Shown here piece by piece: positions 1 to 14,117 of a DNA stretch of 64,000 nt; position 1 is the stretch's first letter, and each line of letters starts with the position of its first letter. A program made the position numbers and the translations under genes. A model generated the notes under the pieces. It ran no database searches and was not told the origin of the DNA. It saw nothing but the letters and a program-made list of their open reading frames with translations. The stretch is from Hymenobacter sp. YC55. Lineage in GTDB: Bacteria; Bacteroidota; Bacteroidia; Cytophagales; Hymenobacteraceae. Location of the stretch: the NCBI RefSeq assembly GCF_029433095.1, contig NZ_JARNTX010000001.1:2790001-2854000 (forward strand). The letters run 5' to 3'.

Positions 1-1462
1 CCGGATGGTAGGTACCATTGAAGCCTATTCCAGTGTAGCGGGCTTCCCAAAGCTGCTGGCCGGTAGCGCTGGCATATTTCACGGTTGCTAAATTACTACC
101 TAGTGCACTAGACGTGACACTGGAATAACCCGTTACGTACACATCGCCGGCGGCATCTAGGGCGAGACTGTATGCCTGTTCAACACCGTCATTTTGCACT
201 CCGCCGTACAGGGCTGCCCATTGCTGTTCACCAGTGGCTGAATACTTCACGGTGGCATAGTCGAAGCGGGTTGGGCCACCGTAAGCGGTGCCGGTTACGA
301 ACACGTTGCCAGCCGCATCTACAGCCAGATCCGTGGGTTGATCATCGCTGAAAAGGTTGGGCGAATTATAGCGCGCAGCCCAGAGTTGCTGCCCACTGGC
401 CGAATACTTCACCGTGGCGTAGTCGTTGGCGCTAGTTATACTTTTGGAGGCGCCGCTCACGTACACGTTGCCGGCCGCGTCTACTGTCACGCTTGTGGCA
501 TTATCGATACTGTTATCGGGGCCATTGTAGCTGGCGGTCCACTGAAGTTGGCCAGCAGCCGAGTACTTGCGAGTGAAATAATCAGAATTGCTGCTCCCAA
601 CTACATAAAAATTGCCGGCGGCGTCAAGGGCTAAGCGAGAGCCAAAGCCGTAGTTTTCGTCTCCCGTAAATATGATTGTACCAAGGATATTGCCACTCGC
701 GGAGTACTGCAAAGTGGTGTAGTAATAGCGCCGTTCGGCGGAGTAGCCACTGCCGGTCACGTACACCGTGCCCGCTGCGTCCACGACCACATCGGTGGGT
801 CGGTCATCTACGATGATGCTACTAACGGTGCCAAGACTAACCCACAGTTGCTGACCATTGGCCGCGTACTTGATGGTAACATAGCGCGAAAGCCTACTGC
901 CACCTTCGGCCGAGTATCCTGTTACGTACACGTTGCCGGCGGCATCCACGGCCATGTCAGTGGCCACATCATTGCCATTGCCAGCACTGTTGTAGCGGGC
1001 GCTCCAGAGTTGCTGGCCATCCGACGAGTATTTGACCGTAGCAAAGTCGTTGCTACCATTTCGGAATGAATAACCCGTTACATACACATTTCCGGCGGCG
1101 TCTACCACCATGTCCTTTGCCTCGTTTTCAACGGTACCCGATTCACTGAAACGGGCTACCCACGCTTCCGTGGCTGAGCCGGTTGTGCTAGACTGAGCGT
1201 TTGTTCCTCTTGCTGATGCGCCTATTTTCTGGGGGGGCCTAGCAGGTGCTGGCCGGTTGGCTGATAAGGACTCGTTGGCACCGGGTAGCGGGTGGCGCAA
1301 AGCGGGCACTCCGGCGGGCAGTGCCACCTGCGGCCGCAACGCGGGTAAGGTTCGTTGCACTTTGCTGGAAAGTTGAGGCGAACCAACCTGCGCTAAGGTG
1401 CCCGATGGGTGCAGCAGTAAGCTTGCAGCCAAGAATAGCAACCACGTAAAAGCCTGTTTCAT
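1..1462 (-). CDS. Secreted SBBP beta-propeller protein, 3' part cut by window edge
   Basis: The reading frame is open from an ATG at 1462 to the window edge, so only the N-terminal ~487 residues are visible. It begins with a signal peptide (MKQAFTWLLFLAASLLL, cleavage near LAQV). A short variable region follows, then SBBP propeller repeats of about 50-55 residues with the core DAAGNVYVTG...DYATVKYS..GQQLW. Seven complete repeats are visible and an eighth begins. It is the most downstream visible member of five tandem paralogues. By analogy with its neighbours the missing end should carry a T9SS sorting domain, but this cannot be seen. It is probably exported to the cell surface or medium. No catalytic residues are evident. 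Confidence 0.9.
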   Translation of the reverse strand, partial: MKQAFTWLLFLAASLLLHPSGTLAQVGSPQLSSKVQRTLPALRPQVALPAGVPALRHPLPGANESLSANRPAPARPPQKIGASARGTNAQSSTTGSATEAWVARFSESGTVENEAKDMVVDAAGNVYVTGYSFRNGSNDFATVKYSSDGQQLWSARYNSAGNGNDVATDMAVDAAGNVYVTGYSAEGGSRLSRYVTIKYAANGQQLWVSLGTVSSIIVDDRPTDVVVDAAGTVYVTGSGYSAERRYYYTTLQYSASGNILGTIIFTGDENYGFGSRLALDAAGNFYVVGSSNSDYFTRKYSAAGQLQWTASYNGPDNSIDNATSVTVDAAGNVYVSGASKSITSANDYATVKYSASGQQLWAARYNSPNLFSDDQPTDLAVDAAGNVFVTGTAYGGPTRFDYATVKYSATGEQQWAALYGGVQNDGVEQAYSLALDAAGDVYVTGYSSVTSSALGSNLATVKYASATGQQLWEARYTGIGFNGTYHP

Positions 1463-1827
1463 AGAGAGTGGGTTAGGGTTGAAAAAGAACAAAAGCAAGC
1501 CATAGCCCGCCGGGCACACAGCGGGTCGTACTACTTCTAATTACTTCTAGTGGCTCCTAGCTACTGCTGAGCTTCCGGTAGCAGGCCACTGCACTATAGC
1601 AGCAAGCCTCAGTAAATAAGTGAATTAAATCTACAGACACTGTATATGTGCTATATCTTATACACGCTGTTTCCCGGCAGTTCGTGGCCCTCGACCCCGT
1701 AAGCAAGAGCCGTGAGAAACTTGAAAAGCAAGCTCCACTCAACGGGCAGGCGCTTCTACTACCTACAAAAAAGCGCCTCCCGCACAAGGCAGAAGACGCT
1801 TTTCAAGCGTATTACTAAACTATGAAG
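1463..1827. other. Intergenic gap between SBBP genes
   Basis: This gap holds the terminator of the 1828-5028 gene at 1767-1803 and, on the other side, the promoter and leader region of the gene starting at 1462. I see no convincing open reading frame and could not place a clear TAnnTTTG box. Confidence 0.5.
1767..1803 (-). terminator. Intrinsic terminator of SBBP gene 2
   Basis: Read on the minus strand this is a 12-pair stem (arms 1792-1803 and 1769-1780, including two G-U pairs) with a loop of about 11 nt, followed by a run of U (A run at 1767-1772 on the plus strand). It lies 25 bases after the stop of the 1828-5028 gene. Confidence 0.85.
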
Positions 1828-4800
1828 TTAGTGGCTGACCACTACGCGCACGGTTTCGCGCTGGCCGTTGACGAGCAACGAGCAAGTGTAGAGGCCTGCG
1901 CTCAGCTTCTCACTGTGGAGCGGCAACTCGTAGTGCTGGCCTTGGCGCACTTTGCCCTCGTACAAGGTGGCGACCTGCTGGCCGAGCTGGTTGTAAACGC
2001 TTACCTGAGCAGATCCGTCGAGCACCGGACGAAAGCTCACGGTAGTCGGGCCGGAGGCCGGGTTGGGATACACGGCTAGCTCGTGCAGTTGCCTGGTAGG
2101 GCCCGCTACGGCTAGCGGCGCACTGAGGGTTGCCGCGGGGGCTACACCCACCAGCGCCACCGGTCCTACGCCGGTGTTCTGGCCGTACTTAAGCGTGGCG
2201 AAATCATAGCCGGTGCTGGCGCCGAACGAGAAACCGGTGATGCACACGTTGCCAGCGCCGTCGAGGGAAAGAGCGGCGGCCTCGTCGTAGCTATTGCCGG
2301 GTCCGTCGTAGCGCGCTTCCCACAGCTGCTGCCCACTGGTACCGGAGTATTTGAGCGTGGTATAGTCGTCGGTGCCGTCGCGGTTGAACGACGAGCCCGT
2401 CACGTACACGTTACCGGCCGGGTCGATGGCGAGAGCCGCGGCTTGGTCGTAGCTATTGTCGGGCCCGTTGTAGCGGGTGGCCCACACTTGTCGGCCGCCA
2501 TAGTAGGGCGCAATGTAGTCGTACTTCACCGTTGCATAGTCGTAGGTGCCACCCGTGCCAAACGAGAAGCCCGTCACAACGGCGTCGCCTGTGGCATCCA
2601 AGGCAATGCCCGTCGGAATATCATCGCTGTTGGCAGTTCCATTGTAGCTGCTGAAGACCACTGCGGCCCCGTTTTCACCGAGGTATTTGATGGTTACGTA
2701 ATCGTAGTTGCTACGCCCGTTGGTGGCAGCGCCCGTTACTATTACGTTGCCCGCATCGTCCACCACCATGGCCGTTGGCACTTCATTGCTGTTGCCGCTG
2801 CCGGTGCCAGTGTAGCGGGTCTCCCACAGTTGGCGGCCGCTAGCGGCTGCGTACTTGAGGGTGGCATAGTCGTAGTCGTTTGGGGTGGCATTGGTGGCCG
2901 CGCCGGTCACGTACACGTTGCCGGCCGAATCGAGGGCCACGGCCGATACTACCTCGTTGCTGTTGCCGATTCCGGCGTAACGCGCTTCCCATACGGGCTG
3001 CCCGGTGGCGGCAGCATACTTGAGCGTGACGTAGTCGTAGTCGCGAAAATTGGCGGCTATGGCGGTGCCCGTCACTACCACGTTGCCGGCGGCGTCTATG
3101 GCCAGAGCCGTTGCGGCTTCGTCGCCGTTGCTGTTGTAGCGGGCTTCCCAGATCTGCTGGCCCGTAGGTGAGTATTTGACGGTGGCATAGTCGAACCCAC
3201 TAATACTATCGTAGGCGGTGCCCGTCACGTACACGTTGCCGGCGCTGTCCAAGGCCAGGGCTTCGGGTATCTCGTCGCCATTACCCCGGCCGTTGTAGCG
3301 GGCTTCCCAGAGCTGCTGCCCACTGGCGGCGTACTTGACGGTGGCGTAGTCGTAGTTGCGTCCGTTGTAGGCGTAGCCCGTCACGTACACGTTGCCCGCC
3401 GCGTCGGCTGCCTGGCTAATGGCCACCTCGTTGCTGCTGCTGGCGGGCGGGGTAAAGCGCGCCTCCCACACTTGCAGCACATTATTTTGCTCGTATTTGA
3501 TGGTAGCGAGCACAGAGTTGGTGGTTATGATAATGTTGTTGGACGAAGCGCCGGTGACGTACACGCTGCCGGTTGGCCCTACCACCACCGCTACTGCTAC
3601 CTCACTGGTGGGCAAGGGCCCTGTTCCGGCGTAGCGCGTTTGCCAAACCTGTTGGCCACTGGCGCCATTGTACTTGAGTGTGGCGTATTCGCTGATGGAT
3701 TGCGTGAGGCCCGAGTAGCCGGTCACATATACATCGCCGGCTGCATCAACCGCCAACGCGTAGGCTTCGTCGACGCTAATCCCGCCGTTGCCGTTGTACA
3801 AGGCTTGCCACACTTGCTGCCCGCTGGCCGAATATTTCACCGTGCCATAGTCGTAGCTGCTCAGAAAGTTATTGAAAGACGTACCGGTCACAACCACATT
3901 GCCGTCGGCGTCTACGGCTAAGGCAGTGGGCACATCCAAGCTGGTGCTGGAACCACTGAACCGACTGCTCCACAGCTCTTGGCCACTAGCCGAATATTTG
4001 AGGGTGGCGTAGTCGGAAAGCTGACCGACTAGCTCGGACCGCCCCGTCACGTACACGTTGCCTACCGCGTCCACGGCAATTTCAGTGGCCTGATCGTCGC
4101 TATTGCCCGGTCCCGAGTTGTAGAGGGCGCTCCACTGCTGCTGTCCCGCGGGCGAGAACTTTACCGTGCTATAGTCGTTGCCCGTGCCGTTGCCCGTAGC
4201 CGTGCCGGTTACGTAGGCGTTGCCGGCCGCATCTACGGCCAGATCCTTCACCGAGCCAAAGAGCGATAGCAGCCACAATTGCTGGCCGGTGCTTGCGGCG
4301 TATTTGACGAGGTTGTTGGCGCCGCTGCCCACGTATACGTTGCCGGTGGCATCGAGCGCCAAAGAAGCGCCTACGCCGCCACCGCTGTAGCTGGCCGTCC
4401 ACAACTGCTGGCCGGTAGCCGAGTATTTGACGGTGGTCCCCACGGAGTTGTTGCTGTTGCCACGGGTGGCGTAGCCCGTTACATACACGTTGCCGGTGGC
4501 ATCCACAGCCAGATCCGTCGCCCGGTCATCGGTGTTGCCGGGCCCGGAGTTAAACAAAACGCTCCAGAGCTGCTGGCCACTGGGCGAGTACTTGATGGTC
4601 ACGTAGTCGTTGCCGCGGCCGGTAGTGATAGCCGTTGTAGAGTAGCCGGTCACGTAAGTATTGCCGGCCGCATCCACTACCAAGTTGCTGGCCACATTGA
4701 TGCTAGGCCCATCGTAGAGGGCCACCCAGGCCTCGGTGACCGAACCGGCGGTGACGCCCTGGGTGCTCGTTCCCCTTGCGGATGTAGCTGGTTGCTGGAC

Positions 4801-5028
4801 GGACCTGACAGGTGTGGGTCGGCGCGTCAGTAGCGCGGCCTTGTCGCCAGGCCGCGCGTGGGATAAGGACGGGGCTCCCGGTGACAACAGCAGCGCTTGA
4901 GGCAGCGGGGGCAGTTGCCGCTCGACGCGCCTCGACGCCCGAGTTAGGTCCGCCTGCCCCTGGGCAGTTGACACATGGAACAACAGGCTTGCCACCAGCG
5001 GCAGCAAACGCGTAAAAGCTTGTTTCAT
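1828..5028 (-). CDS. Secreted SBBP beta-propeller protein with T9SS sorting domain (1066 aa)
   Basis: The signal peptide is MKQAFTRLLPLVASLLFHVS, ending near AQGQA. A conserved pro-like region of about 90 residues follows, then 16 SBBP repeats, counted by the NVYVTG-type strand followed by YDYATVKYS and GQQLW. Repeat 3 is shortened. Repeat 8 departs from consensus (KYEQNNVLQVW), which may mark the end of a first eight-bladed propeller. The last ~85 residues form a type A T9SS sorting domain (LAVYPNPASGPTTVSF, VYNQLGQQVATLYEG, LSAGLYTCSLLVNGQ). The protein should be secreted through the type IX system and anchored or released outside. The function of the propellers is unknown; ligand or polymer binding is the usual guess. 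The gene is monocistronic, with a terminator directly behind it. Confidence 0.93.
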   Translation of the reverse strand: MKQAFTRLLPLVASLLFHVSTAQGQADLTRASRRVERQLPPLPQALLLSPGAPSLSHARPGDKAALLTRRPTPVRSVQQPATSARGTSTQGVTAGSVTEAWVALYDGPSINVASNLVVDAAGNTYVTGYSTTAITTGRGNDYVTIKYSPSGQQLWSVLFNSGPGNTDDRATDLAVDATGNVYVTGYATRGNSNNSVGTTVKYSATGQQLWTASYSGGGVGASLALDATGNVYVGSGANNLVKYAASTGQQLWLLSLFGSVKDLAVDAAGNAYVTGTATGNGTGNDYSTVKFSPAGQQQWSALYNSGPGNSDDQATEIAVDAVGNVYVTGRSELVGQLSDYATLKYSASGQELWSSRFSGSSTSLDVPTALAVDADGNVVVTGTSFNNFLSSYDYGTVKYSASGQQVWQALYNGNGGISVDEAYALAVDAAGDVYVTGYSGLTQSISEYATLKYNGASGQQVWQTRYAGTGPLPTSEVAVAVVVGPTGSVYVTGASSNNIIITTNSVLATIKYEQNNVLQVWEARFTPPASSSNEVAISQAADAAGNVYVTGYAYNGRNYDYATVKYAASGQQLWEARYNGRGNGDEIPEALALDSAGNVYVTGTAYDSISGFDYATVKYSPTGQQIWEARYNSNGDEAATALAIDAAGNVVVTGTAIAANFRDYDYVTLKYAAATGQPVWEARYAGIGNSNEVVSAVALDSAGNVYVTGAATNATPNDYDYATLKYAAASGRQLWETRYTGTGSGNSNEVPTAMVVDDAGNVIVTGAATNGRSNYDYVTIKYLGENGAAVVFSSYNGTANSDDIPTGIALDATGDAVVTGFSFGTGGTYDYATVKYDYIAPYYGGRQVWATRYNGPDNSYDQAAALAIDPAGNVYVTGSSFNRDGTDDYTTLKYSGTSGQQLWEARYDGPGNSYDEAAALSLDGAGNVCITGFSFGASTGYDFATLKYGQNTGVGPVALVGVAPAATLSAPLAVAGPTRQLHELAVYPNPASGPTTVSFRPVLDGSAQVSVYNQLGQQVATLYEGKVRQGQHYELPLHSEKLSAGLYTCSLLVNGQRETVRVVVSH

Positions 5029-5447
5029 ACGGTGGGATAATGGTTAGGAAAACAAAAAGCAGGTCGAAACCTGCGGAATGGCAAAAACTCAACGTCTCAT
5101 TTCGGCGCTTCAGTTGGAAGTAGGCAGCACCGGGTATGCAGGGGCAGCTAGCGGCGGTACAAAGGCGGGTACCGGTCTACCAGTAAATTAACGAATTAAT
5201 ACTAATTATTCTATATATACTACGACATCAATTATCTTCTTGTTTTCTGGCAAGTCGTACAATTACCTATACTAGAGGCTGTTTCTCTTTCCTTAGGGCA
5301 GGAAACCGCCTTCAAAAAAGAAAAGAACTATTTCTAGGCCACGCCTAGACCTAAATTGGCAGCTACAGTCGTGCTGCTACGCCGCAAAAAAGCGCCACCA
5401 GAAAAAGTCTGGCGACGCTTTTTTCACGAAGCGAAATACAAGCTTGG
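5029..5447. other. Intergenic gap between SBBP genes
   Basis: The part near 5180-5280 is AT-rich and probably contains the promoter of the gene starting at 5028. The terminator of the next gene lies at 5386-5424. No coding sequence was seen. Confidence 0.5.
5386..5424 (-). terminator. Intrinsic terminator of SBBP gene 3
   Basis: Arms 5386-5402 and 5408-5424 match over 15 of 17 bases, giving a long stem with a 5-nt loop and A/T-rich ends that supply the U tract on the minus strand. It begins 24 bases after the stop at 5448. The outer part resembles the terminator of gene 2, in keeping with tandem duplication. Confidence 0.9.
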
Positions 5448-8400
5448 TTAATGCGTTACAACCAGCCGTACCGCTTCGCGCTGGCCGTTGACGAGCAAGG
5501 AGCAGGTATAGAGGCCCGCGCTCAGCTTCTCACTGTGGAGCGGCAGCTCGTAGTGTTGACCTTGGCGCACCTTGCCTTCGTACAAGCTGGCCACTTGCTG
5601 GCCGAGTTGGTTGTAAACCCGCACCTGTGCCGCCCCATCCTGCACCGGCCGGAAGCTGATGGTGGTTGGGCCAGCCGTTGGGTTGGGGTACACGGACAGT
5701 TCTTGGGCCCCTCTCTTGGAGGCCGCAACGGCTAGTGGTGAACTAATGGTTCTTACAGGAGCCGTTGAAGCTGAGCCGCCAGCTTGGTTATACTTAATAG
5801 TGGTATAACTCCCACTAGAACTTCCGGCCACATATACATTGCCCGCTACATCGACAGCTAGTGCTGCCGCGTAATCTCCACCGGCATCGTAGCTGGCTTG
5901 CCATTCTTGCTGGCCACTAGCTCCGGCATACTTAATTGTGACGATGTTATAGTCAGGATACAAGAACCGGGTGATAGTCCCGGTTATGTACACGTTGCCA
6001 TTTGCATCCAAAACCAAGTCCTTCACATCATCATTATTACTTCCCTCACCGTTGTAGCGAGCCTCCCACAACTGCTGGCCGTTGGGGGAATACTTCACTG
6101 TAGCATAGTCATGACCTGAATAAGTAGTCTGGTCGTAATTATAAGTATAGCCGGCTACAACCACATTGCCCGCGGCATCCACGGCAATTTTTGTGGCTTC
6201 ATTCTCAATAATACCTGGTCCATTGCCCGCGTAGTAGGCCACCCACATTTGCTCACCACTAGCCGAGTATTTGAGGGTAGTAAAGCTAGAAGAGAGGCGG
6301 CCTGTTGAAGAGGTGCCGGTTACGTATACGTTGCCCGCGGCATCAATTACGATGTCATTAACATTACCATAGCCAGATACGGCGGATGTGTAGCGGGTTA
6401 CCCACAGTTGCTGGCCGCTATTCGCGTCGTACTTGACCGTGGCGTACGCGTCGTGCTCAAGAATACCGGGGCTGATGATCCTATAGGAGTTGCCGGTTAC
6501 GGCCACGTTACCAGCCGCATCCACCGCGAGGCTAATGGCACGTTCAGTGCGATTGTCCGGCCCATTGTAGCGCGATTCCCAAAGCTGTTGCCCATTAGTT
6601 CCATCATACTTGAGCGTGGCGTAGTCGCCATCGTCCGTAGCTTTGAAAGAAGTACCTGTCACGACCACATTGCCCGCCGCATCCACGGCTATGCTACTAG
6701 CCAAATCATTTTGATTGCCACCTCCGTTGTAGCGGGCTATCCACAGCTGCTGGCCATCAGTTGAATACTTGATGGTGGCGTAATCATAGCCGCTGCCGCT
6801 ACCCTCGGAAGAGCCCGTTACCACCACATTATTCGCTTTATCCAAGGCTATGGCGGTAGGATTATCGGACCCATTGGCAGGTCCATTATAGCGGGCCACC
6901 CAGAGTTGCTGACCACTGGCCGAGTACTTGATAGTGACGTAGTCGTAGCGGTTATTGCTTTCCAAATTTCTGCCTGTTACATATACGTTGCCGGTTGCAT
7001 CCACAACCATGTCGGCCGCTTCATAGTAGGAGCTGATATATTCATTGAAGCTAGCCTCCCATACTCGTTGCCCACTGGCGTTGTATCTGATGGTGGTATA
7101 GTTGGTGTCGTTGAAGCCTTCGCCGCTGGAGGCCCCCACCACAAACACGTTGCCGGAGGCGTCGCCGGTTATAGCGGCCGGTGCGTCATCGCCAAGACGC
7201 GTGCCGTGGTAGCGGCTAGCCCAGAGTTGCTGGCCAGAGTTACTGTACTTTACGGTGGAGAAGTCACTGGTACCGCTGCTGTTATAGGAGCGGCCTGTCA
7301 CGGTTACATTACCTGATCCGTCCACGACTATATCCCGGGCTTCATCGTAGCTGTTGGCTGGGCCATTGTAGCGCGCTTCCCACAATTGCTGACCGCTAGC
7401 GCCGGCGTACTTGAGCGTGACGTAGTCCCAGTTGCCACCGCCAATGTCGGCATAGCCCGTCACGGCCACAGTACCTGTCGCATCCACGGCTACGCTGGTA
7501 GCTTCGTCGTAGCTGTTGCCGGCGCCATTGTAACGGGCTGCCCAGAGCTGCTGACCGCTGGTCGAGTAGCGCACGGTGGCATAGTCGTAGTTGCCGGTGC
7601 CGTCGTCGCTAGTACCCGTCACGGCCACATTGCCACTGGCGTCTACAGCCAGGTCCCGCGCTAAGTCCCAACTGTTAGCTGGTCCATTGTAAAGTGCTTG
7701 CCATTGCTGCACACCGGTAGTCGAGTACTTGATGGTAGCATAATCGCTCTGATTCGCCGTAGAGGTGGTACCCGTCACCACTACATTGCCCGTGGCGTCC
7801 ACGACTAAATTAGTAGGTACTTCATCGCTAGTACCTGTGTTGTTGTAGCGCGCCTGCCAGAGCTGATTGCCACTGGGAGTGTACTTGAGCGTAACGTAGT
7901 CGTAGCTACTGCCGCTGCTATTAGAGGTACCGGTGACATACACGTTCCCGGATCTATCCACCGCTACATCTGTTGCTACATCCTCCTTGTTATTGATGTT
8001 ATAGCGCGCGGTCCAGAGCTGCTGTCCACTAGGCGAGTACTTGACGGTCAGATAATCGTACGTCCGTCCGTTGGCATTATAGGAATACCCCGTCACTAGG
8101 ACATTGCCGGCCGCATCTACCGCAATACTGGCCGGCACATCATCATCACCAACGCCCGGATAGTTGGGTCCATCATAGCGAGCTTGCCAGAGTTTCTGAC
8201 CATTAGGCGAGTACTTGATGGTAAGGTAATCATAACGGGTAATACTACCGAAGGAGTAACCTGTGACGTACGTGTTGCCCGCTGCATCCACTGTTACGTC
8301 GGTAGCTGCGTCGTAACTGTTGCCCGGCCCGGCATAGCGAGCTACCCATTCTTCGCTGACTGGTCCATCGACAACCCCTGAAGTTTTTGCCCCAACTGCA

Positions 8401-8657
8401 CTTACCTCATCCCGACGAACTACCGGCCGCTCTAGCTTCTTGGCTATTTTGCTGGTCCCTACTTCCCGCTTGGTACCAGGCAACGCGTGTTGCAAAGCCG
8501 GGGGACCGAGTGGCAGCAATAAGTTCTGTATTTGGGTCGGCAGGGCCCTTGTAGCTCTGCCCGCCGCTTGGGGTTGATAAACCTGAGCCTGACTGACAGG
8601 CACAGAGAGGAGTACGCCTGCTGCTGCTGGCAGCAAGCGAGTGAAAAGGTGTTTCAT
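5448..8657 (-). CDS. Secreted SBBP beta-propeller protein with T9SS sorting domain (1069 aa)
   Basis: The signal peptide is MKHLFTRLLPAAAGVLLSV, with cleavage near SQAQV. A pro-like region of ~85 residues follows (LPTQIQNLLLPLGPPALQHA), then 16 SBBP repeats counted from the sequence. Blades carry the pattern DAAGNV.VTG..., YDYATVKYS, SGQQLW.ARYNGP. The C-terminal ~80 residues are a T9SS sorting domain (LSVYPNPTAGPTTISF ... LVNGQREAVRLVVTH). At DNA level the last ~190 bases are about 95% identical to the next paralogue, much more than the blades are. It is expected outside the outer membrane. No enzymatic motif was seen; it could be an adhesin or a polymer-binding protein. Confidence 0.93.
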   Translation of the reverse strand: MKHLFTRLLPAAAGVLLSVPVSQAQVYQPQAAGRATRALPTQIQNLLLPLGPPALQHALPGTKREVGTSKIAKKLERPVVRRDEVSAVGAKTSGVVDGPVSEEWVARYAGPGNSYDAATDVTVDAAGNTYVTGYSFGSITRYDYLTIKYSPNGQKLWQARYDGPNYPGVGDDDVPASIAVDAAGNVLVTGYSYNANGRTYDYLTVKYSPSGQQLWTARYNINNKEDVATDVAVDRSGNVYVTGTSNSSGSSYDYVTLKYTPSGNQLWQARYNNTGTSDEVPTNLVVDATGNVVVTGTTSTANQSDYATIKYSTTGVQQWQALYNGPANSWDLARDLAVDASGNVAVTGTSDDGTGNYDYATVRYSTSGQQLWAARYNGAGNSYDEATSVAVDATGTVAVTGYADIGGGNWDYVTLKYAGASGQQLWEARYNGPANSYDEARDIVVDGSGNVTVTGRSYNSSGTSDFSTVKYSNSGQQLWASRYHGTRLGDDAPAAITGDASGNVFVVGASSGEGFNDTNYTTIRYNASGQRVWEASFNEYISSYYEAADMVVDATGNVYVTGRNLESNNRYDYVTIKYSASGQQLWVARYNGPANGSDNPTAIALDKANNVVVTGSSEGSGSGYDYATIKYSTDGQQLWIARYNGGGNQNDLASSIAVDAAGNVVVTGTSFKATDDGDYATLKYDGTNGQQLWESRYNGPDNRTERAISLAVDAAGNVAVTGNSYRIISPGILEHDAYATVKYDANSGQQLWVTRYTSAVSGYGNVNDIVIDAAGNVYVTGTSSTGRLSSSFTTLKYSASGEQMWVAYYAGNGPGIIENEATKIAVDAAGNVVVAGYTYNYDQTTYSGHDYATVKYSPNGQQLWEARYNGEGSNNDDVKDLVLDANGNVYITGTITRFLYPDYNIVTIKYAGASGQQEWQASYDAGGDYAAALAVDVAGNVYVAGSSSGSYTTIKYNQAGGSASTAPVRTISSPLAVAASKRGAQELSVYPNPTAGPTTISFRPVQDGAAQVRVYNQLGQQVASLYEGKVRQGQHYELPLHSEKLSAGLYTCSLLVNGQREAVRLVVTH

Positions 8658-8760
8658 AGAAAAGGAAAGGTTGGAAATAATAAAGGCACTTAATTGGTGT
8701 GGCGGCGTAGTTAAGAAGCAAGCACAAACAAGCGCTGCAGCTACGGGCGGCTTACAGGTA

Positions 8761-8793
8761 TGCAGGCGCTGGCTATAGGTGCCAGCGCCTGCA
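8761..8793. terminator. Perfect 13-bp hairpin after SBBP gene 4
   Basis: Arms 8761-8773 and 8781-8793 are perfectly complementary (TGCAGGCGCTGGC) around a 7-nt loop, 15 bases after the stop at 8808. There is no A/T tract on the downstream side. It is therefore either a factor-assisted terminator or a 3'-end stabilising hairpin, not a textbook intrinsic terminator. Confidence 0.65.
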
Positions 8794-8807
8794 GCAGCGA
8801 TAGAGTT

Positions 8808-11800
8808 TTAGTGAGTTATAACCAGCCGTACTGATTCGCGTTGGCCATTGACGAGCAAGGAGCAGGTATAGAGGCCCGCACTCAGTTTCTCGCTGTGGAG
8901 CGGCAGCTCGTAGTGTTGACCTTGGCGCACCTTGCCCTCGTACAAGCTGGCCACTTGCTGGCCGAGTTGGTTGTAGACCCGCACCTGTGCCGCCCCGTCC
9001 TGCACCGGCCGGAAACTGACGGTAATCGGGCCTGTGGTCGGGTTCGGATACACGCTTAGCTCGTGTAACTGCCGACTTGGAGCCGCCACTGCAAGTGGTG
9101 AACTAATGGATCCGACGGAGGCCGTGCTGGTGGCTAGCGCCAGTGGCCCGCCGCCGTTGTTCTGGCTGTACTTGAGCGTGGCGAAGTCGTAGCCCGTATC
9201 TGTGCCTTGCGAGTAGCCACTCACGTACACGTTGTTGCTCGCGTCTACCGTGATGGCCGCCGCTTCGTCGTAGCTACCAGTTCCGTCGTAGCGCGCCGCC
9301 CAGAGTTGCCGACCGGTCTGCAGACTAGGATTAGCATTTGGCCAGACGGCATACTTGACGGTCGCATAGTCATCGGTGCCATCGCTGTTGTACGACAGAC
9401 CCGTTACATAGGCGTTGCCAGCCGCGTCTACGGCTACGGCCTTGGCTTCCTCATAGCTATTGTCGGGACCATTGTAGTTAATCGTCCATGCGAGGCGCCC
9501 GGTTCCCATCTGGTACATCATAGTAACATAGTCAGCGCCCGTGCTGCTGAACGAGGTACCTACTACATACGCAAACTCATTACGCAGGCCCGTCACCATA
9601 TCCGCTACCACATCATCACCATTGCTGGGTCCATTGTAGCGGCCTACCCATTGCTGCTGGCCCGTGCTTCTGGTGTATTCGCTGGTGGCAATGTCGAAGC
9701 CCGTGCTAGTGCCCCCATCGGAGGTGCCGGTCACCACGACACTGCTTTGAAAACCGTTGGCAAGGGCAATTCTAGCGGCCTCATCATAGCCGTTGGCCGG
9801 GCCATTGTAGCGCGTCTCCCACACCTGCTGCCCATTGGCGTCGTACCTAACGGTAGCATAGTCGCTTTGTGTGTCGGTGTAAGTGGTGCCGGTCACGTAC
9901 ACGTCGCCCGCCGGGTCCACCACCAAGTCCGCCGCGAGGTCGAAGCTGTTGGCCGGGCCGTTGTAGCGGGTGGCCCACTGCTGCTGGCCATTCGTATCAT
10001 ATTTGACGGTGGCGTAGTCGTAGCTGCTGGTGCTGCCGTTGTCGGAGGAGCCGGTCACGTACACGTTGCCTGTTCCATCAACCTCCACTTTGGAAGCTAA
10101 GTCATAGCCATTGGCGGGGCCGTTGTAGCGCTTCACCCACAACTGCTGGCCCGTGGGCGAGTACTTGATGGTGGCGTAGTCGCTCTCGGTGGCACTGTAC
10201 GATGTACCTGAAACGTAGACGTTGCCCGCGGCATCGACTACCACGTTGGTAGGCAGGTCCTCATTGTCGGCCGGGCCATTGTAGCGCGCCTCCCATTGCT
10301 GCTGCCCGTTGGCATTATACTTCACCGTGGCGTAGTCGTAGTTGCGCCCGTTGTAGGCGTAGCCCGTTACGTACACGTTGCCGGCCGCATCACTGACTAC
10401 ATCTTTGGCTACTTCGGCGCTGTTGCCCGTGCCCGTGAACCGTGCCTCCCACGCCTCCTGTACGCTGTTTTGTTCGTATTTGACGAGCGTAAAGCTAGTT
10501 CCATCGGGAGCCTTTCCAGAGTCGCCGCCCACGTACACGTTGCCGGCGGTATCTAGGCCGATGTGCTTAGCCATATCCGCCCTGTTGGCCGGGCCGTTGT
10601 AACGAGCCTCCCATACCTGCTGGCCACTAGCCGAGTACTTTACCGTCGCATAGTCGTTGTTGGTGCTCAGGCCCTGCGAGGTTCCGGCCACGTATACGTT
10701 GCCAGCTGCATCGAGCACCATATCAACGAGCACATTATCGAAGCCTTGAGCGCCGTTACCGGTCGGACCGTTATAGCGTGCCAGCCAGAGTTGCTGGCCG
10801 CTCGGCGAATACTTGATGGTGGCAAATTCGTCTTTAGCGCCGCTACTCGAGGAGCCTGTTACAAACACGTTGTTGTTGGCATCCACAGCCAGGGCCGTGG
10901 GCTCGTCTGCGCCGTTGGCGGGGCCGTTGTAGACTGCTTCCCACAATTGCTGCCCGGTGGCCGCAGCGTACTTTCGGGTGGCATAGTTGGTGCTGCTAGT
11001 GGTGGTGGCGTAGTAGCCGATAGCAAGCAAGTCGCCGGCGCCATCTACCATTAACTTATCAAGAACAGGAAAAATGTTTCCCTGGTTGGAGGCAGTCCAT
11101 ACCAGTTGGCCGGTAGCTTTGTCGTACTTGAAAATAGTCCGGTCCCGCGATACGTACGCATTGCCGGCGGCATCCGCGGCTACGGCATTAGGTCCTCCGT
11201 TGTTACTAGTATACGCAGTGCTCCACAACCGTGTGCCGTTGGCCGAGTACTTGACCGTGACCATATCGGCGTTGCGGGGGGGGTTGGTGCCGGCAAAAAT
11301 AATAGTGCCCGTCACGTACACATTACCCGCCGCGTCTACGGCCAAGGCTTCCGCTACATCATTATTGCTTTCTCTATCAAAGCGATTAACCCACAAGGTT
11401 TGACCACTAGGTGAATACTTAACTGTAAGAAAGTCTGCACGGGAAGTTGGAGTACCACTCGTGGCAGCGAAAACGGTAGAGGTACCGGTTACAATCACGT
11501 TCCCCGCTGCGTCGAGCACCAGATCAACGGGGCGGTCGACGCTGCCGTATCGGCCGGGCGAGTTGTAGTACTCTTCCCAAACCAGCTGGCCACTAGGCGA
11601 GAACTTTGACGTCACGTAATCTTCGCCCGACGAATTATGGCCTAGCACATACGTGTTACCAGCAGCGTCCACCTCCATGTCGACCCGAGTGAAAGCCGCG
11701 GAGTTGGCCCCTTCCCGGTAGCGAGTCGCCCACACTTGGCTGGTTGTTTCGGCAGCGCTGGTCCGGGCTTGGCTTTGCACGGCCCCAGCTAGGGCTACTT

Positions 11801-12044
11801 GCTTGCTGCCAGAACGGACGAGGCCGCGCTGCTGAGCCAGGCGCTTCGTGGGTCCTACCCCTAGAGTAGTGATGGCGTGGCGCAGGGTTGGCGCACCAGC
11901 TGGCAGCGAGAACTGGAGCTGCGTAGGCAGGCCTTTTGGGGCTTTGCTAGCCGAGATTGAGGGTGTTACTTGGGCCTGACTGGCAGGCACACACAGGAGC
12001 AGGCCTGCTGCCAGCGGCAGCAAACGGGTAAACGTCTGTTTCAT
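8808..12044 (-). CDS. Secreted SBBP beta-propeller protein with T9SS sorting domain (1078 aa)
   Basis: The signal peptide is MKQTFTRLLPLAAGLLLCVPASQAQ. A pro-like region follows (LPTQLQFSLPAGAPTLRHAI), then 16 SBBP repeats by count. Repeat 4 is short (NAYVSRDRTIFKYDKATGQ), repeat 8 is aberrant (KYEQNSVQEAW), and repeat 9 (NVYVTGYAYNGRNYDYATVK) is the same as repeat 9 of the 1828-5028 paralogue, so the two genes are collinear blade by blade. The final ~80 residues are a T9SS sorting domain ending SVRLVITH. Its 5' leader is nearly identical to that of the 5448-8657 gene for about 30 bases. Secreted; function unknown. Confidence 0.93.
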   Translation of the reverse strand: MKQTFTRLLPLAAGLLLCVPASQAQVTPSISASKAPKGLPTQLQFSLPAGAPTLRHAITTLGVGPTKRLAQQRGLVRSGSKQVALAGAVQSQARTSAAETTSQVWATRYREGANSAAFTRVDMEVDAAGNTYVLGHNSSGEDYVTSKFSPSGQLVWEEYYNSPGRYGSVDRPVDLVLDAAGNVIVTGTSTVFAATSGTPTSRADFLTVKYSPSGQTLWVNRFDRESNNDVAEALAVDAAGNVYVTGTIIFAGTNPPRNADMVTVKYSANGTRLWSTAYTSNNGGPNAVAADAAGNAYVSRDRTIFKYDKATGQLVWTASNQGNIFPVLDKLMVDGAGDLLAIGYYATTTSSTNYATRKYAAATGQQLWEAVYNGPANGADEPTALAVDANNNVFVTGSSSSGAKDEFATIKYSPSGQQLWLARYNGPTGNGAQGFDNVLVDMVLDAAGNVYVAGTSQGLSTNNDYATVKYSASGQQVWEARYNGPANRADMAKHIGLDTAGNVYVGGDSGKAPDGTSFTLVKYEQNSVQEAWEARFTGTGNSAEVAKDVVSDAAGNVYVTGYAYNGRNYDYATVKYNANGQQQWEARYNGPADNEDLPTNVVVDAAGNVYVSGTSYSATESDYATIKYSPTGQQLWVKRYNGPANGYDLASKVEVDGTGNVYVTGSSDNGSTSSYDYATVKYDTNGQQQWATRYNGPANSFDLAADLVVDPAGDVYVTGTTYTDTQSDYATVRYDANGQQVWETRYNGPANGYDEAARIALANGFQSSVVVTGTSDGGTSTGFDIATSEYTRSTGQQQWVGRYNGPSNGDDVVADMVTGLRNEFAYVVGTSFSSTGADYVTMMYQMGTGRLAWTINYNGPDNSYEEAKAVAVDAAGNAYVTGLSYNSDGTDDYATVKYAVWPNANPSLQTGRQLWAARYDGTGSYDEAAAITVDASNNVYVSGYSQGTDTGYDFATLKYSQNNGGGPLALATSTASVGSISSPLAVAAPSRQLHELSVYPNPTTGPITVSFRPVQDGAAQVRVYNQLGQQVASLYEGKVRQGQHYELPLHSEKLSAGLYTCSLLVNGQRESVRLVITH

Positions 12045-12464
12045 AGAAAAGGAAAGGTTGGAAATAAATAAAGCGGAACTACCCTGCTAATCAGCCAAAT
12101 AGATATAATAGGAAAACAAGAAAGCACAAGGCTACTACCCCGTCTTTCCCTAAAGCTTCGCAGTGCCTGCAATTACCGAACAAGCGCGCAGATTTTAGCA
12201 TTGAATTCTGTAAAAAAGTAAAATTATCCATGAATTAATAATAAAATAATCTCGGCCTTATACAGATAATTACAAGATTTTGTTGCAGCCTATTTGTTGA
12301 ATTTCAAATTGTAAATATTAAAGTTTAGTCAACTCGCTTATCCAGCTAATGCAACACAAAACTTAAATAATATAGAAGCATAGTAGAAGCTTCTCGTAAT
12401 ACATACAAAAGGCGCCTTCAAACTCGAGTTTGAGGGCGCCTTTTTCGCAAGCAGTTGACTAAGG
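12045..12464. other. AT-rich intergenic gap
   Basis: This is the most AT-rich stretch of the array (about 12180-12370). It probably contains the promoter of the gene starting at 12044. The terminator of the next gene lies at 12407-12444. No coding sequence was seen. Confidence 0.5.
12407..12444 (-). terminator. Intrinsic terminator of SBBP gene 5
   Basis: A long near-perfect stem is formed by AAAAGGCGCC at 12407-12416 and GGCGCCTTTT at 12435-12444, with an inner stem TCAAACT/AGTTTGA. It lies 21 bases past the stop at 12465, with U-rich ends in either direction. Confidence 0.92.
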
Positions 12465-14117
12465 CTAATGCGCGACGTGTAACCGAACAGATTCGCGTTG
12501 GCCGTTCACTAGCAAAGAGCAGGTGTACAAACCCGAAGCCAGCGTCTGGCTATTGAGTGGCAGCGTGTAGCGCTGGCCTTGGCTCACCGTGCCCTGATAC
12601 AAGGTGGCTACTTGTTGCCCAAGCTGATTGTAGACTTGCACCTGCGCCGCCCCACTCGCAAGCGCGCGGAAACTCACAGTGGCTTGCGTGGCAGTTGGGT
12701 TGGGGTACACCGCTAGTTCCTCTAGCGACTTCTGTGCCGGGGCAGCCGCCAGCGGGGAAGAACCCGTCTGAGCGTATTTGACGGTGATATAGTCGGAGTT
12801 GGTGCCGCTGCTTACCGAGGAGCCGGTTACGTACACGTTGCCCGCGGCGTCTACTACAATGCTGTTGGCTTGGTCTACGCCGTTGCTGTCGCCGTTGTAG
12901 CGAATGTGCCAGAGTTGCTGGCCGCTGGTAGCAGCATATTTGAGCGTGGCATAATCGTAACTGTCGCTGTTGCTGCTGTCGGAGTAGCCGGTTACGTAGG
13001 CGTTGCCGGCCGCGTCTACGGCGAGGTCGGTGGCTACATCGGCGCCGTTGCCCGAGCCGTTGTAGCGGGCTTCCCACAGTTGCTGACCGTTAGCCGAATA
13101 CTTGAGCGTGGCGTAGTCGGAGGAACTCAGACTGGCGCCGCTGTAGGAGCGGCCCGTCACGAACACGTTGCCGGCGGCGTCTACGGCGAGGTTGGTGGCC
13201 CAATCGTTGCGGCCGTTGGTTCCGTTGTAGCGGCTCGCCCACTGCTGTTGGCCGGTAACCGAGTACTTCACCGTAACGTAGTCGTAGCCGGTGCTGCTGC
13301 CAAAGGAATAGCCCGTCACGTACACGTTGCTAGCGGCATCTACGGCCATGTCGGTAGCCGAGCCCCCGCCGTTGCTGATGCCGTTGTAGCGGGCTTCCCA
13401 CAGCTGTTGGCCAGTAGCCGAGTACTTAAGCGTCACATAATCGGAGTAGCCGTAGGAAGAACCCGTCACGTACACGTTGCCAGCGGCGTCGAGCGCCAGA
13501 GAGCTGGCTTGATCTTCGCTGCGGCCCGCGCCGTTGTAGCGCGTAACCCAGAGCTGCTTGCCGCTAACGCCGTCGTACTTGAGCGTGGCGTAGTCGCTGC
13601 CGCTACCAGCTCCAACCGAAGCGCCCGTCACGTACACGTTGCCGGCCGCATCTAGGACCAGGTCAGTAGGCTCATCGTTACCGTTGCCAGGGCCGTTGTA
13701 GCGGGCGGTCCAGAGTTGCTGACCGATAGTAGAATATTTGATGGTAACATAATCGGTGTGGCTGGCACCCGTCACGTACACATTGCCTGCCGCATCTACT
13801 ACCACGCTAGTTGCCTTATCGTAGTGGCTGCCGGGCTCGTTGTAGCGGGCTTCCCACAGTTGCTGGCCGTTGGCCGAGTACTTGGTGGTGATAAAGTCGT
13901 ACAGGTTGTCGCTGCCGAGCGAGTAGCCGGTCACGTACACGTTGCCGGCCGCGTCTACGGCCACATCTTTGGCCACGTCGTTGTTGTCGCCTGCCTTGCT
14001 ATTGGTATAAGGAGTAGCCCAAACCTGCTGGATGCCAATGGACTGGGCCTGTAAGGTTGATACAGAAACCAACAAGCCGGCTGCTAACGATAAAAAGTGG
14101 GTAGAAAAGTGCTTCAT
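12465..14117 (-). CDS. Short secreted SBBP beta-propeller protein with T9SS sorting domain (550 aa)
   Basis: The signal peptide is MKHFSTHFLSLAAGLLVSV, with cleavage near LQAQS. There is no long pro-region. Exactly eight SBBP repeats follow, all close to consensus (DAAGNVYVTG, DYATLKYSANGQQLWEARYNG), then a linker rich in Ala and Pro and a T9SS sorting domain (LAVYPNPTATQATVSF, LASGLYTCSLLVNGQ). It has half the repeat number of its three complete neighbours, which fits one eight-bladed propeller versus two. Its sorting domain is the most diverged of the set. It is first in the array, and its upstream gap 14118-14458 is AT-rich. Secreted; function unknown. Confidence 0.93.
   Translation of the reverse strand: MKHFSTHFLSLAAGLLVSVSTLQAQSIGIQQVWATPYTNSKAGDNNDVAKDVAVDAAGNVYVTGYSLGSDNLYDFITTKYSANGQQLWEARYNEPGSHYDKATSVVVDAAGNVYVTGASHTDYVTIKYSTIGQQLWTARYNGPGNGNDEPTDLVLDAAGNVYVTGASVGAGSGSDYATLKYDGVSGKQLWVTRYNGAGRSEDQASSLALDAAGNVYVTGSSYGYSDYVTLKYSATGQQLWEARYNGISNGGGSATDMAVDAASNVYVTGYSFGSSTGYDYVTVKYSVTGQQQWASRYNGTNGRNDWATNLAVDAAGNVFVTGRSYSGASLSSSDYATLKYSANGQQLWEARYNGSGNGADVATDLAVDAAGNAYVTGYSDSSNSDSYDYATLKYAATSGQQLWHIRYNGDSNGVDQANSIVVDAAGNVYVTGSSVSSGTNSDYITVKYAQTGSSPLAAAPAQKSLEELAVYPNPTATQATVSFRALASGAAQVQVYNQLGQQVATLYQGTVSQGQRYTLPLNSQTLASGLYTCSLLVNGQRESVRLHVAH

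What the first reader, a model, noticed from the sequence alone, without database searches (positions are those of the whole stretch)
1..14117. SBBP paralogues carry repeat numbers in multiples of eight (16, 16, 16, 8)
Counting the NVYVTG-type strand in each complete protein gives 16 repeats in the genes at 1828-5028, 5448-8657 and 8808-12044, and 8 in 12465-14117. In two of the long proteins repeat 8 is aberrant (KYEQNxxxxxW) and repeat 9 returns to consensus with the same sequence, as if one propeller ends and another begins. This suggests eight-bladed propellers, single or in tandem, although the Pfam SBBP name implies seven blades. Copy number may change by whole-domain duplication or loss.
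Basis: partly seen in the sequence, partly recalled or inferred. Interest (0 to 1): 0.65.

Follow-up and report, generated by a model that had tools for sequence, protein, structure and literature searches.

The report
Surface proteins built from eight-blade rings
A bacterium carries a row of secreted proteins made of small wheel-shaped domains with eight blades each, and its relatives appear to gain or lose whole wheels rather than single blades, which suggests the wheel is the unit that evolution counts in.

Summary
The counts are right: 16, 16, 16 and 8 repeats, and 16 in the gene cut by the window start. AlphaFold closes the 550-aa protein as one eight-bladed propeller (pLDDT 81) and, in a weaker model of the 1066-aa protein, closes ring 1 after repeat 8; ring 2 shows the same strand pattern but was not tested alone. 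Of 80 intact relatives of this short-blade class (about 53 aa), drawn from ranked hit lists in Hymenobacter, other Bacteroidota and one Calditrichota, 43 have 8 blades, 36 have 16 and one has 24 (74 counted without gap filling). The one clear exception is a broken gene with about 11. A longer-blade class peaks at 7 and 14, less cleanly. The sequence itself shows closure: the outer strand sits before blade 1 and is missing from the last blade. A tree of single rings places the 550-aa gene among second rings of two-ring paralogues, most simply a loss of ring 1. Clustering at whole rings is known for WD40 proteins, with intermediates; here it is octal and nearly strict. Function (surface protein exported by T9SS, perhaps binding polysaccharide) is inferred.

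The parts
2..1519 (-). SBBP gene cut by window start; signal region and blades 1-7 of a 16-blade (two-ring) protein continued in L031
   Evidence: 7 blades here, 10 in L031 sharing one
1828..5028 (-). Two-ring SBBP protein, 1066 aa, 16 blades, T9SS C-terminal tail
3481..4749 (-). Ring 1 of the 1066-aa protein (residues about 94-516)
   Evidence: strands; rows span about 93-516 of the model
2179..3474 (-). Ring 2 of the 1066-aa protein (residues about 519-950)
   Evidence: strand pattern 1+7x4+3; not searched on its own
5448..8657 (-). Two-ring SBBP protein, 1069 aa, 16 blades, seamless ring junction at about residue 526 (by sequence)
8808..12044 (-). Two-ring SBBP protein, 1078 aa, 16 blades, KYEQN junction at about residue 526 (by sequence)
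12465..14117 (-). Single-ring SBBP protein, 550 aa, 8 blades, most simply a two-ring paralogue that lost ring 1
12768..14030 (-). The eight-bladed ring of the 550-aa protein (residues 30-450)
   Evidence: strand 30-36, 7x4 strands, 3 strands
12465..12710 (-). Por_Secre_tail (T9SS sorting domain), residues 470 to the end
   Evidence: residues 470-540, 37.7 bits over cut-off 27

Best explanation
Each gene makes a secreted, T9SS-sorted protein of one or two (in one relative three) closed eight-bladed beta-propellers. Blade = strands A (DLAVDA), B (VYVTG), C (DYATVKY), D (QLWEARY). A ring is written as [D8][ABCD]x7[ABC]: the first strand of the ring completes its last blade (a Velcro closure), so a ring cannot gain or lose one blade without leaving an open or misfitted wheel, and copies survive as whole rings. 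Ring number then changes by losing or adding a ring, and paralogues exchange sequence in register. Shown: counts, the closure pattern in sequence, a predicted eight-bladed ring for the 550-aa protein and ring 1 of the 1066-aa one, the tree placement. Inferred: selection on closure as the cause of the quantisation; ring 2 structure; direction of the ring loss; function as a surface binder, perhaps of polysaccharide (about 0.4).
For: Counts: 80 of 80 intact countable short-blade proteins are 8, 16 or 24 (43, 36, 1), 74 with no gap filled in, in 58 clusters at 60% identity and 11 at 40%. AlphaFold 550 aa: 32 propeller strands = 1+7x4+3; VIA-align best rows Fbw7 Z 37.5, Sqt1, designed Cake8 with 312 aligned residues of a 320-residue chain at 2.1 A. 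1066 aa: the 50 rows shown all span one ring, starting at model residue 67-112 and ending at 485-516; Tako8, called eight-bladed in its title, 313 of 319 residues at 1.9 A. Sequence closure: a W lies in the 27 residues before blade 1 in 75 of 80 proteins, at the same median distance (14) as in interior blades, against 7 of 60 in the next window upstream; W after strand C in 708 of 796 interior blades but 2 of 76 last blades. Ring loss: window 12465 and its G509 orthologue sit with three second rings (100/99 support), 64% identity to ring 2 plus tail of L031_14192 against 46-52% for other placements. In-register exchange: L031_3657 and L031_14192 are 84-97% DNA-identical in blades 2-8 but 60% in blade 1 and 53-66% in 9-16. 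Constraint despite scrambling: L151 has 16 blades at 77% mean aa identity with no offset-8 register.
Against: L162, a gene broken into two frames, counts 5 + 6 blades (about 11; the sixth of the second piece read by eye), not a multiple of 8; its 159-bp units are 86-93% alike and its genome is in about 480 contigs, so real slippage and misassembly cannot be told apart. The 1066-aa model is weak (pLDDT 65.5, pTM 0.47, three sequences) and its ring 2 was not searched alone. Only 4 of 36 two-ring proteins show ring1-ring2 register at p<0.05, so duplication of a whole ring is not shown for most. Orthologue comparison shows no sign of diversifying loops (BC loop 0.194 changed against 0.248 in the CD turn). 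Places were picked from ranked hit lists, not at random, and many proteins are close paralogues. Ten low-scoring rows first labelled short class were set aside (see Tried and rejected).
Confidence: 0.83

Rival explanations
1. The multiples of eight are inherited, not enforced: a few ancestral 8s and 16s were copied to all relatives, and nothing prevents other numbers.
For: 30 of the 36 two-ring proteins are Hymenobacter array-type proteins that fall in a few lineages; paralogue arrays make many copies of one event.
Against: Two-ring proteins occur in separate places of the ring tree (G396, G207, the G011/G457 pair and the main Hymenobacter set; starred branches force at least 5 changes of the ring1 label, quick method). 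G396 L151 has ring 1 and ring 2 as each other's closest kin (98). G231 has 24. Blades in L151 are out of register yet still 16.
Confidence: 0.17
2. The repeats form seven-bladed or open structures and the number eight is an accident of counting.
For: The best sequence relative of known structure, CylK, is seven-bladed and is Foldseek's first hit; the Pfam name is recalled to mean seven-bladed.
Against:: eight blades and closure at repeat 8; CylK ranks below eight-bladed folds by Z (34.3 against 37.5). The long-blade class that peaks at seven is a separate group by profile.
Confidence: 0.03
3. 16-blade proteins fold as one large 16-bladed ring or as an uneven pair, not 8+8.
For: A published model of a 15-blade WD40 protein splits 7+8 (PMC9218822, section 14 part 1), so an uneven split is possible; ring 2 was not tested alone here.
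Against: Ring 1 of the 1066-aa model closes at about 93-516; terminal-type Gln lies in 11 of 35 inner eighth blades against 9 of 796 others; single-ring relatives have 8.
Confidence: 0.05

Closest known systems
Pfam SBBP (PF06739) proteins
   Same: All four complete window proteins match over the cut-off.
   Different: The window class has about 53-aa blades and eight per ring; the long-blade class (about 62-65 aa) peaks at 7 and 14.
CylK beta-propeller domain (PDB 7fh6, 7fh7, 7fh8, 7ron, 7roo)
   Same: Closest known structure by sequence (E 5e-15) and first by Foldseek.
   Different: Seven blades, fused to a calcium-binding domain, an enzyme (PMC8916777, passages seen). Whether the blade-junction calcium sites are shared was not tested; an Asp in the D-A loop is 86% conserved where aligned.
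Highly repetitive WD40-like propellers with peaks at 7 and 14 blades (PMC9218822)
   Same: Repeat numbers cluster at whole rings; two-ring proteins exist (section 14 part 1 read; passages).
   Different: There a continuum of intermediate numbers and a 47-blade extreme are reported, among highly identical blades; here 80 of 80 intact countable proteins are 8n, at lower blade identity.
Designed eight-fold propellers Tako8, Cake8 (PDB)
   Same: Near full overlap with the predicted rings.
   Different: Symmetric and artificial; the blades of the four window proteins are on average 45-62% alike and lie in one or two rings.

Membership tests
SBBP (PF06739) | Profile match over curated cut-off | tested here: met
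   122, 122, 107 and 125 bits on the four complete proteins, cut-off 20.5
SBBP (PF06739) | Seven blades (implied by the name as recalled; not part of the Pfam model, so not a condition of membership) | tested here: not met
   eight per ring in this class
Eight-bladed beta-propeller fold | Eight four-stranded blades closed in a ring, 550-aa protein | tested here: met
   (prediction, not experiment)
Eight-bladed beta-propeller fold | Ring 1 of the 1066-aa protein closes after repeat 8 | tested here: met
   (weak model)
Eight-bladed beta-propeller fold | Ring 2 of the 1066-aa protein closes after repeat 16 | tested here: inconclusive
T9SS substrate | C-terminal sorting domain (Por_Secre_tail) | tested here: met
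   4 of 4 complete window proteins over cut-off
T9SS substrate | Secreted and anchored in vivo | not testable with these tools
   needs experiment
CylK-type propeller | Seven blades | tested here: not met
CylK-type propeller | Calcium at blade junctions | not tested
   Asp of the D-A loop 86% conserved where aligned; coordination not examined

The most novel reading that the evidence does not exclude
In this family the eight-bladed ring is the quantum of selection: blades are exchanged and homogenised, but only chains that close into whole rings persist, and two-ring proteins were made more than once, by adding a ring in front (fusion with a retained terminal blade, KYxQN) or behind (seamless). 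Seven-blade and eight-blade quanta coexist in one genome (7, 14 and 8, 16), so ring number is set by blade sequence class.
Probability: 0.5. Interest if true: 0.62.

Novelty: new variant of a known kind. Interest (0 to 1): 0.5.

Why it matters
Propellers are thought to arise by amplifying single blades, and a published survey finds a continuum of blade numbers around each family's favourite. A natural family with an 8, 16, 24 series next to a 7, 14 series in the same genome lets one ask directly what fixes ring size: the same arrays contain similar blades, in-register exchange between paralogues and an apparent ring loss, all open to expression and folding tests in laboratory strains.

Tried and rejected
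Whole-ring duplication as the source of all 16s: rejected as general; blade i against i+8 register is significant in 4 of 36, and the register signal between single rings and rings of two-ring proteins is near zero (0.7 and 1.0, against 10.9 among first rings).

Ring-1 swapping among the 11 proteins that share a ring-2 clade: not supported; their first rings do not reject one clade (p-AU 0.41).

Blade length alone sets blade number: rejected; a third class (DGGYIIAG type, about 52 aa) has seven blades in 5 of 5 counted with their own profile (L171, L174, L176, L178, L179).

Fast-evolving binding loops: six orthologue pairs show no excess in the BC loop, though it is the most variable part among all blades.

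Rows dropped before the count of 80: 89 short-class rows with mean blade score 26 or more, less 5 that run off a locus or contig end (two are pieces of the gene cut by the window start, one is a piece of L077_3519 which is counted, and L161 and L035_16920), and 4 with odd numbers: two pieces of L162, one piece L188, and L155, which reads 7 with the class profile but 8 and with its own profile. Six of the 80 have 1-3 blades filled in from spacing (L168, L040, L110, L170, L166_11129, L186). Ten rows labelled short with mean under 26 were set aside as other families or too degenerate: L169 (14 counted), L172 (15 counted), L153_4435 (7), L175 (6), L181 (8) and the five DGGYIIAG rows. Fourteen and fifteen may be undercounts, since repeats fade in the sequence; they are not resolved and could be real departures.

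Long-blade class is less clean: of 56 closed rows, 38 have 7, 2 have 14 and 16 read 3-6; of 26, 19 have 7, 3 have 14 and 4 read 4-6; of 19 (rows with mean score under 20 left out), 12 have 7 and 7 read 5-6. In several of the low ones a double spacing or a weak last blade suggests a missed repeat; others are a 1,100-1,300-aa subfamily with five detectable repeats. The three 14s came from six proteins of about 950-1,200 aa fetched in the hope of finding 14s (the other three read 7, 6 and 7). Plasmid proteins of other phyla: Gloeothece 7, Deinococcus 7 (one filled in), Paludisphaera 7, Nostoc 6.

Literature: 'SBBP' with 'beta-propeller' gave 2 papers, 'SBBP repeat' 1, 'Hymenobacter' with 'SBBP' none, tandem eight-bladed terms 1, seen as a listing only, eight-bladed with tandem and blade 28 (20 listed), blade-number terms 4, T9SS terms 15 (8 listed). 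Nothing on blade quanta in SBBP was seen in these listings; the library lacks most subscription journals. PMC8078820 was seen in two passages only.
Full report
What was checked. Five minus-strand genes at 2-14117 encode SBBP proteins. A blade profile built from the 550-aa protein and iterated over the own-genome proteins finds 16, 16, 16 and 8 blades in the four complete genes, repeated with class profiles made from up to 250 blades each out of 653 short and 237 long ones. The gene cut by the window start has 16 (7 in the window, 10 in L031, one shared).

It holds 12 short-class proteins with 16 blades and 4 with 8, one of the latter running off a contig, plus a 279-aa ORF at C12:1425-1763 that looks like a fragment. 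Nine of the genes form one tandem array, of which the window holds the upstream end.

Structure. AlphaFold2 on the 550-aa protein with 11 sequences gives pLDDT 81.4, pTM 0.74 and 32 propeller strands arranged 1+7x4+3. VIA-align against the PDB ranks Fbw7 (Z 37.5), Sqt1, Cake8 (312 aligned residues of 320, 2.1 A), Scone and Sif2 on top, with the aligned range starting at the N-terminal strand in most of them; CylK follows at Z 34.3. That Fbw7, Sqt1, Sif2, BamB and the Cake and Scone designs are eight-bladed is recalled; Tako8 is called eight-bladed in its title. Foldseek's own first hits are CylK, the closest by sequence, a seven-bladed protein according to its paper (PMC8916777, passages seen). 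The 1066-aa protein, with three sequences, gives a weaker model (pLDDT 65.5, pTM 0.47) with strands in two sets of 1+7x4+3. The 50 rows shown of its VIA-align run all cover one ring, ending at 485-516; Tako8 matches 313 of 319 residues at 1.9 A over 97-515. No row covers ring 2: one range is reported per chain. The single-ring 550-aa protein, itself nearest to second rings, stands in as its model by homology.

Sequence evidence of closure, independent of modelling. In the 80 intact proteins a W lies in the 27 residues before blade 1 in 75, at the same median distance (14 residues) as between interior blades; the next window upstream has a W in 7 of 60. A W follows strand C in 708 of 796 interior blades and 31 of 35 inner eighth blades, but in 2 of 76 last blades. 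So the chain is [D][ABCD]...[ABC], the pattern of a ring closed by its first strand. Gln two residues after KY marks last blades (56 of 76) and inner eighth blades of multi-ring proteins (11 of 35) and few others (9 of 796). Ten of those 11 two-ring proteins belong to the one ring-2 clade of 11, which suggests that this lineage arose by end-to-end fusion, keeping the terminal blade of ring 1, while the other lineage has a seamless junction.

Counts in relatives. Regions were picked from hit lists of Hymenobacter (61 genomes; 120 genomes), the phylum (395 genomes), the class (247 genomes), plasmids and named genomes. The lists themselves were cut off and I fetched only part of them, mostly the better matches. 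Of 89 short-class rows, 80 were intact and countable: 43 with 8, 36 with 16, one with 24; 74 of them needed no gap filling. They form 58 clusters at 60% identity and 11 at 40%. If any number from 8 to 24 were equally allowed, 11 independent draws would all be multiples of eight with chance (3/17)^11, about 5e-9 (my arithmetic; the clusters are not truly independent). The long-blade class peaks at 7 (38 of 56, 19 of 26, 12 of 19) with five proteins of 14; three of the five came from six proteins fetched because of their length. The one clear exception in the short class is L162, a broken gene with about 11 blades in a fragmented assembly. Two degenerate proteins set aside, L169 and L172, read 14 and 15 and are unresolved.

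How rings change. A tree of 118 rings (quick) and a careful one of 65 Hymenobacter rings show: the 550-aa gene and its G509 orthologue sit with second rings of three two-ring paralogues (100/99), and protein homology starts at the Velcro strand QQ[VL]W, so ring 1 was most simply lost, though the reverse direction is not excluded. Ring 2 of one lineage (11 rows, 99/97) is sister to ring 1 of the other (19 rows; fork 85/89 in the careful tree, 96 in the quick one), as if a ring had been added in front in one lineage and behind in the other. G396 L151 has both rings as nearest kin (98), a separate origin. Paralogues also exchange sequence in register: L031_3657 and L031_14192 are 84-97% identical at DNA level in blades 2-8 and 53-66% in blades 9-16; window 8808 and L040 the reverse, 86-90% in blades 9-11 and 46-72% in blades 1-8. 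Such exchange may explain why repeat 9 of two window proteins reads the same, although those two proteins are only 73% identical at DNA level there.

Function. The tail is a T9SS sorting domain. Single-ring relatives carry malectin with or without a PKD-like domain, cadherin-like or nidogen-like domains (four of the eight proteins scanned). One H. volaticus orthologue lies among pectin and xylan genes, and its own-genome counterpart L040 lies next to a GH67 ORF. A polysaccharide-facing surface role is the best guess, about 0.4. Loops joining strands B and C are the most variable among all blades, but orthologues show no speed-up there.

Verdict. Clustering of repeat numbers at whole rings is known for WD40-like propellers, with intermediates (PMC9218822, section 14 part 1). 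What is new here, as far as the listed searches show, is the near-strictness, the octal unit in a family named (as recalled) for seven, and the coexistence of 7/14 and 8/16 series in one genome.

Noticed in passing
L035:8444-11500, L091:3289-6309, L215:2812-5814, L216:2679-5657, L217:2451-5471: Long-blade SBBP proteins with 14 blades, apparently two seven-bladed rings (in one search one blade of L035_8444 is filled in).
   Followed up: partly
L160:4626-9014: 24-blade protein with T9SS tail, the only triple ring seen.
   Followed up: partly
L169:3817-6963 and L172:3977-7213: Degenerate relatives with 14 and 15 repeats counted, lengths like the 16-blade proteins; true number unresolved.
   Followed up: partly
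L040:6474-8417: One ORF of the own genome reads GH67 middle and C-terminal domains followed by a histidine-kinase ATPase domain; odd fusion or a join error.
   Followed up: no
L188:5025-8457: H. volaticus plasmid SBBP gene beside a malectin ORF, apparently broken into two frames.
   Followed up: no
L162:3769-6070: Broken SBBP gene with 159-bp units 86-93% alike and about 11 blades, one lacking its B strand by eye.
   Followed up: partly
L171, L174, L176, L178, L179: A related DGGYIIAG-type repeat family, about 52 aa per blade yet seven blades.
   Followed up: partly
L031, L076-L077, L195-L196: Tandem arrays of the short class occur in three Hymenobacter genomes (G000, G039, G509); the seven array genes of G039 that were fetched are all two-ring.
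   Followed up: partly
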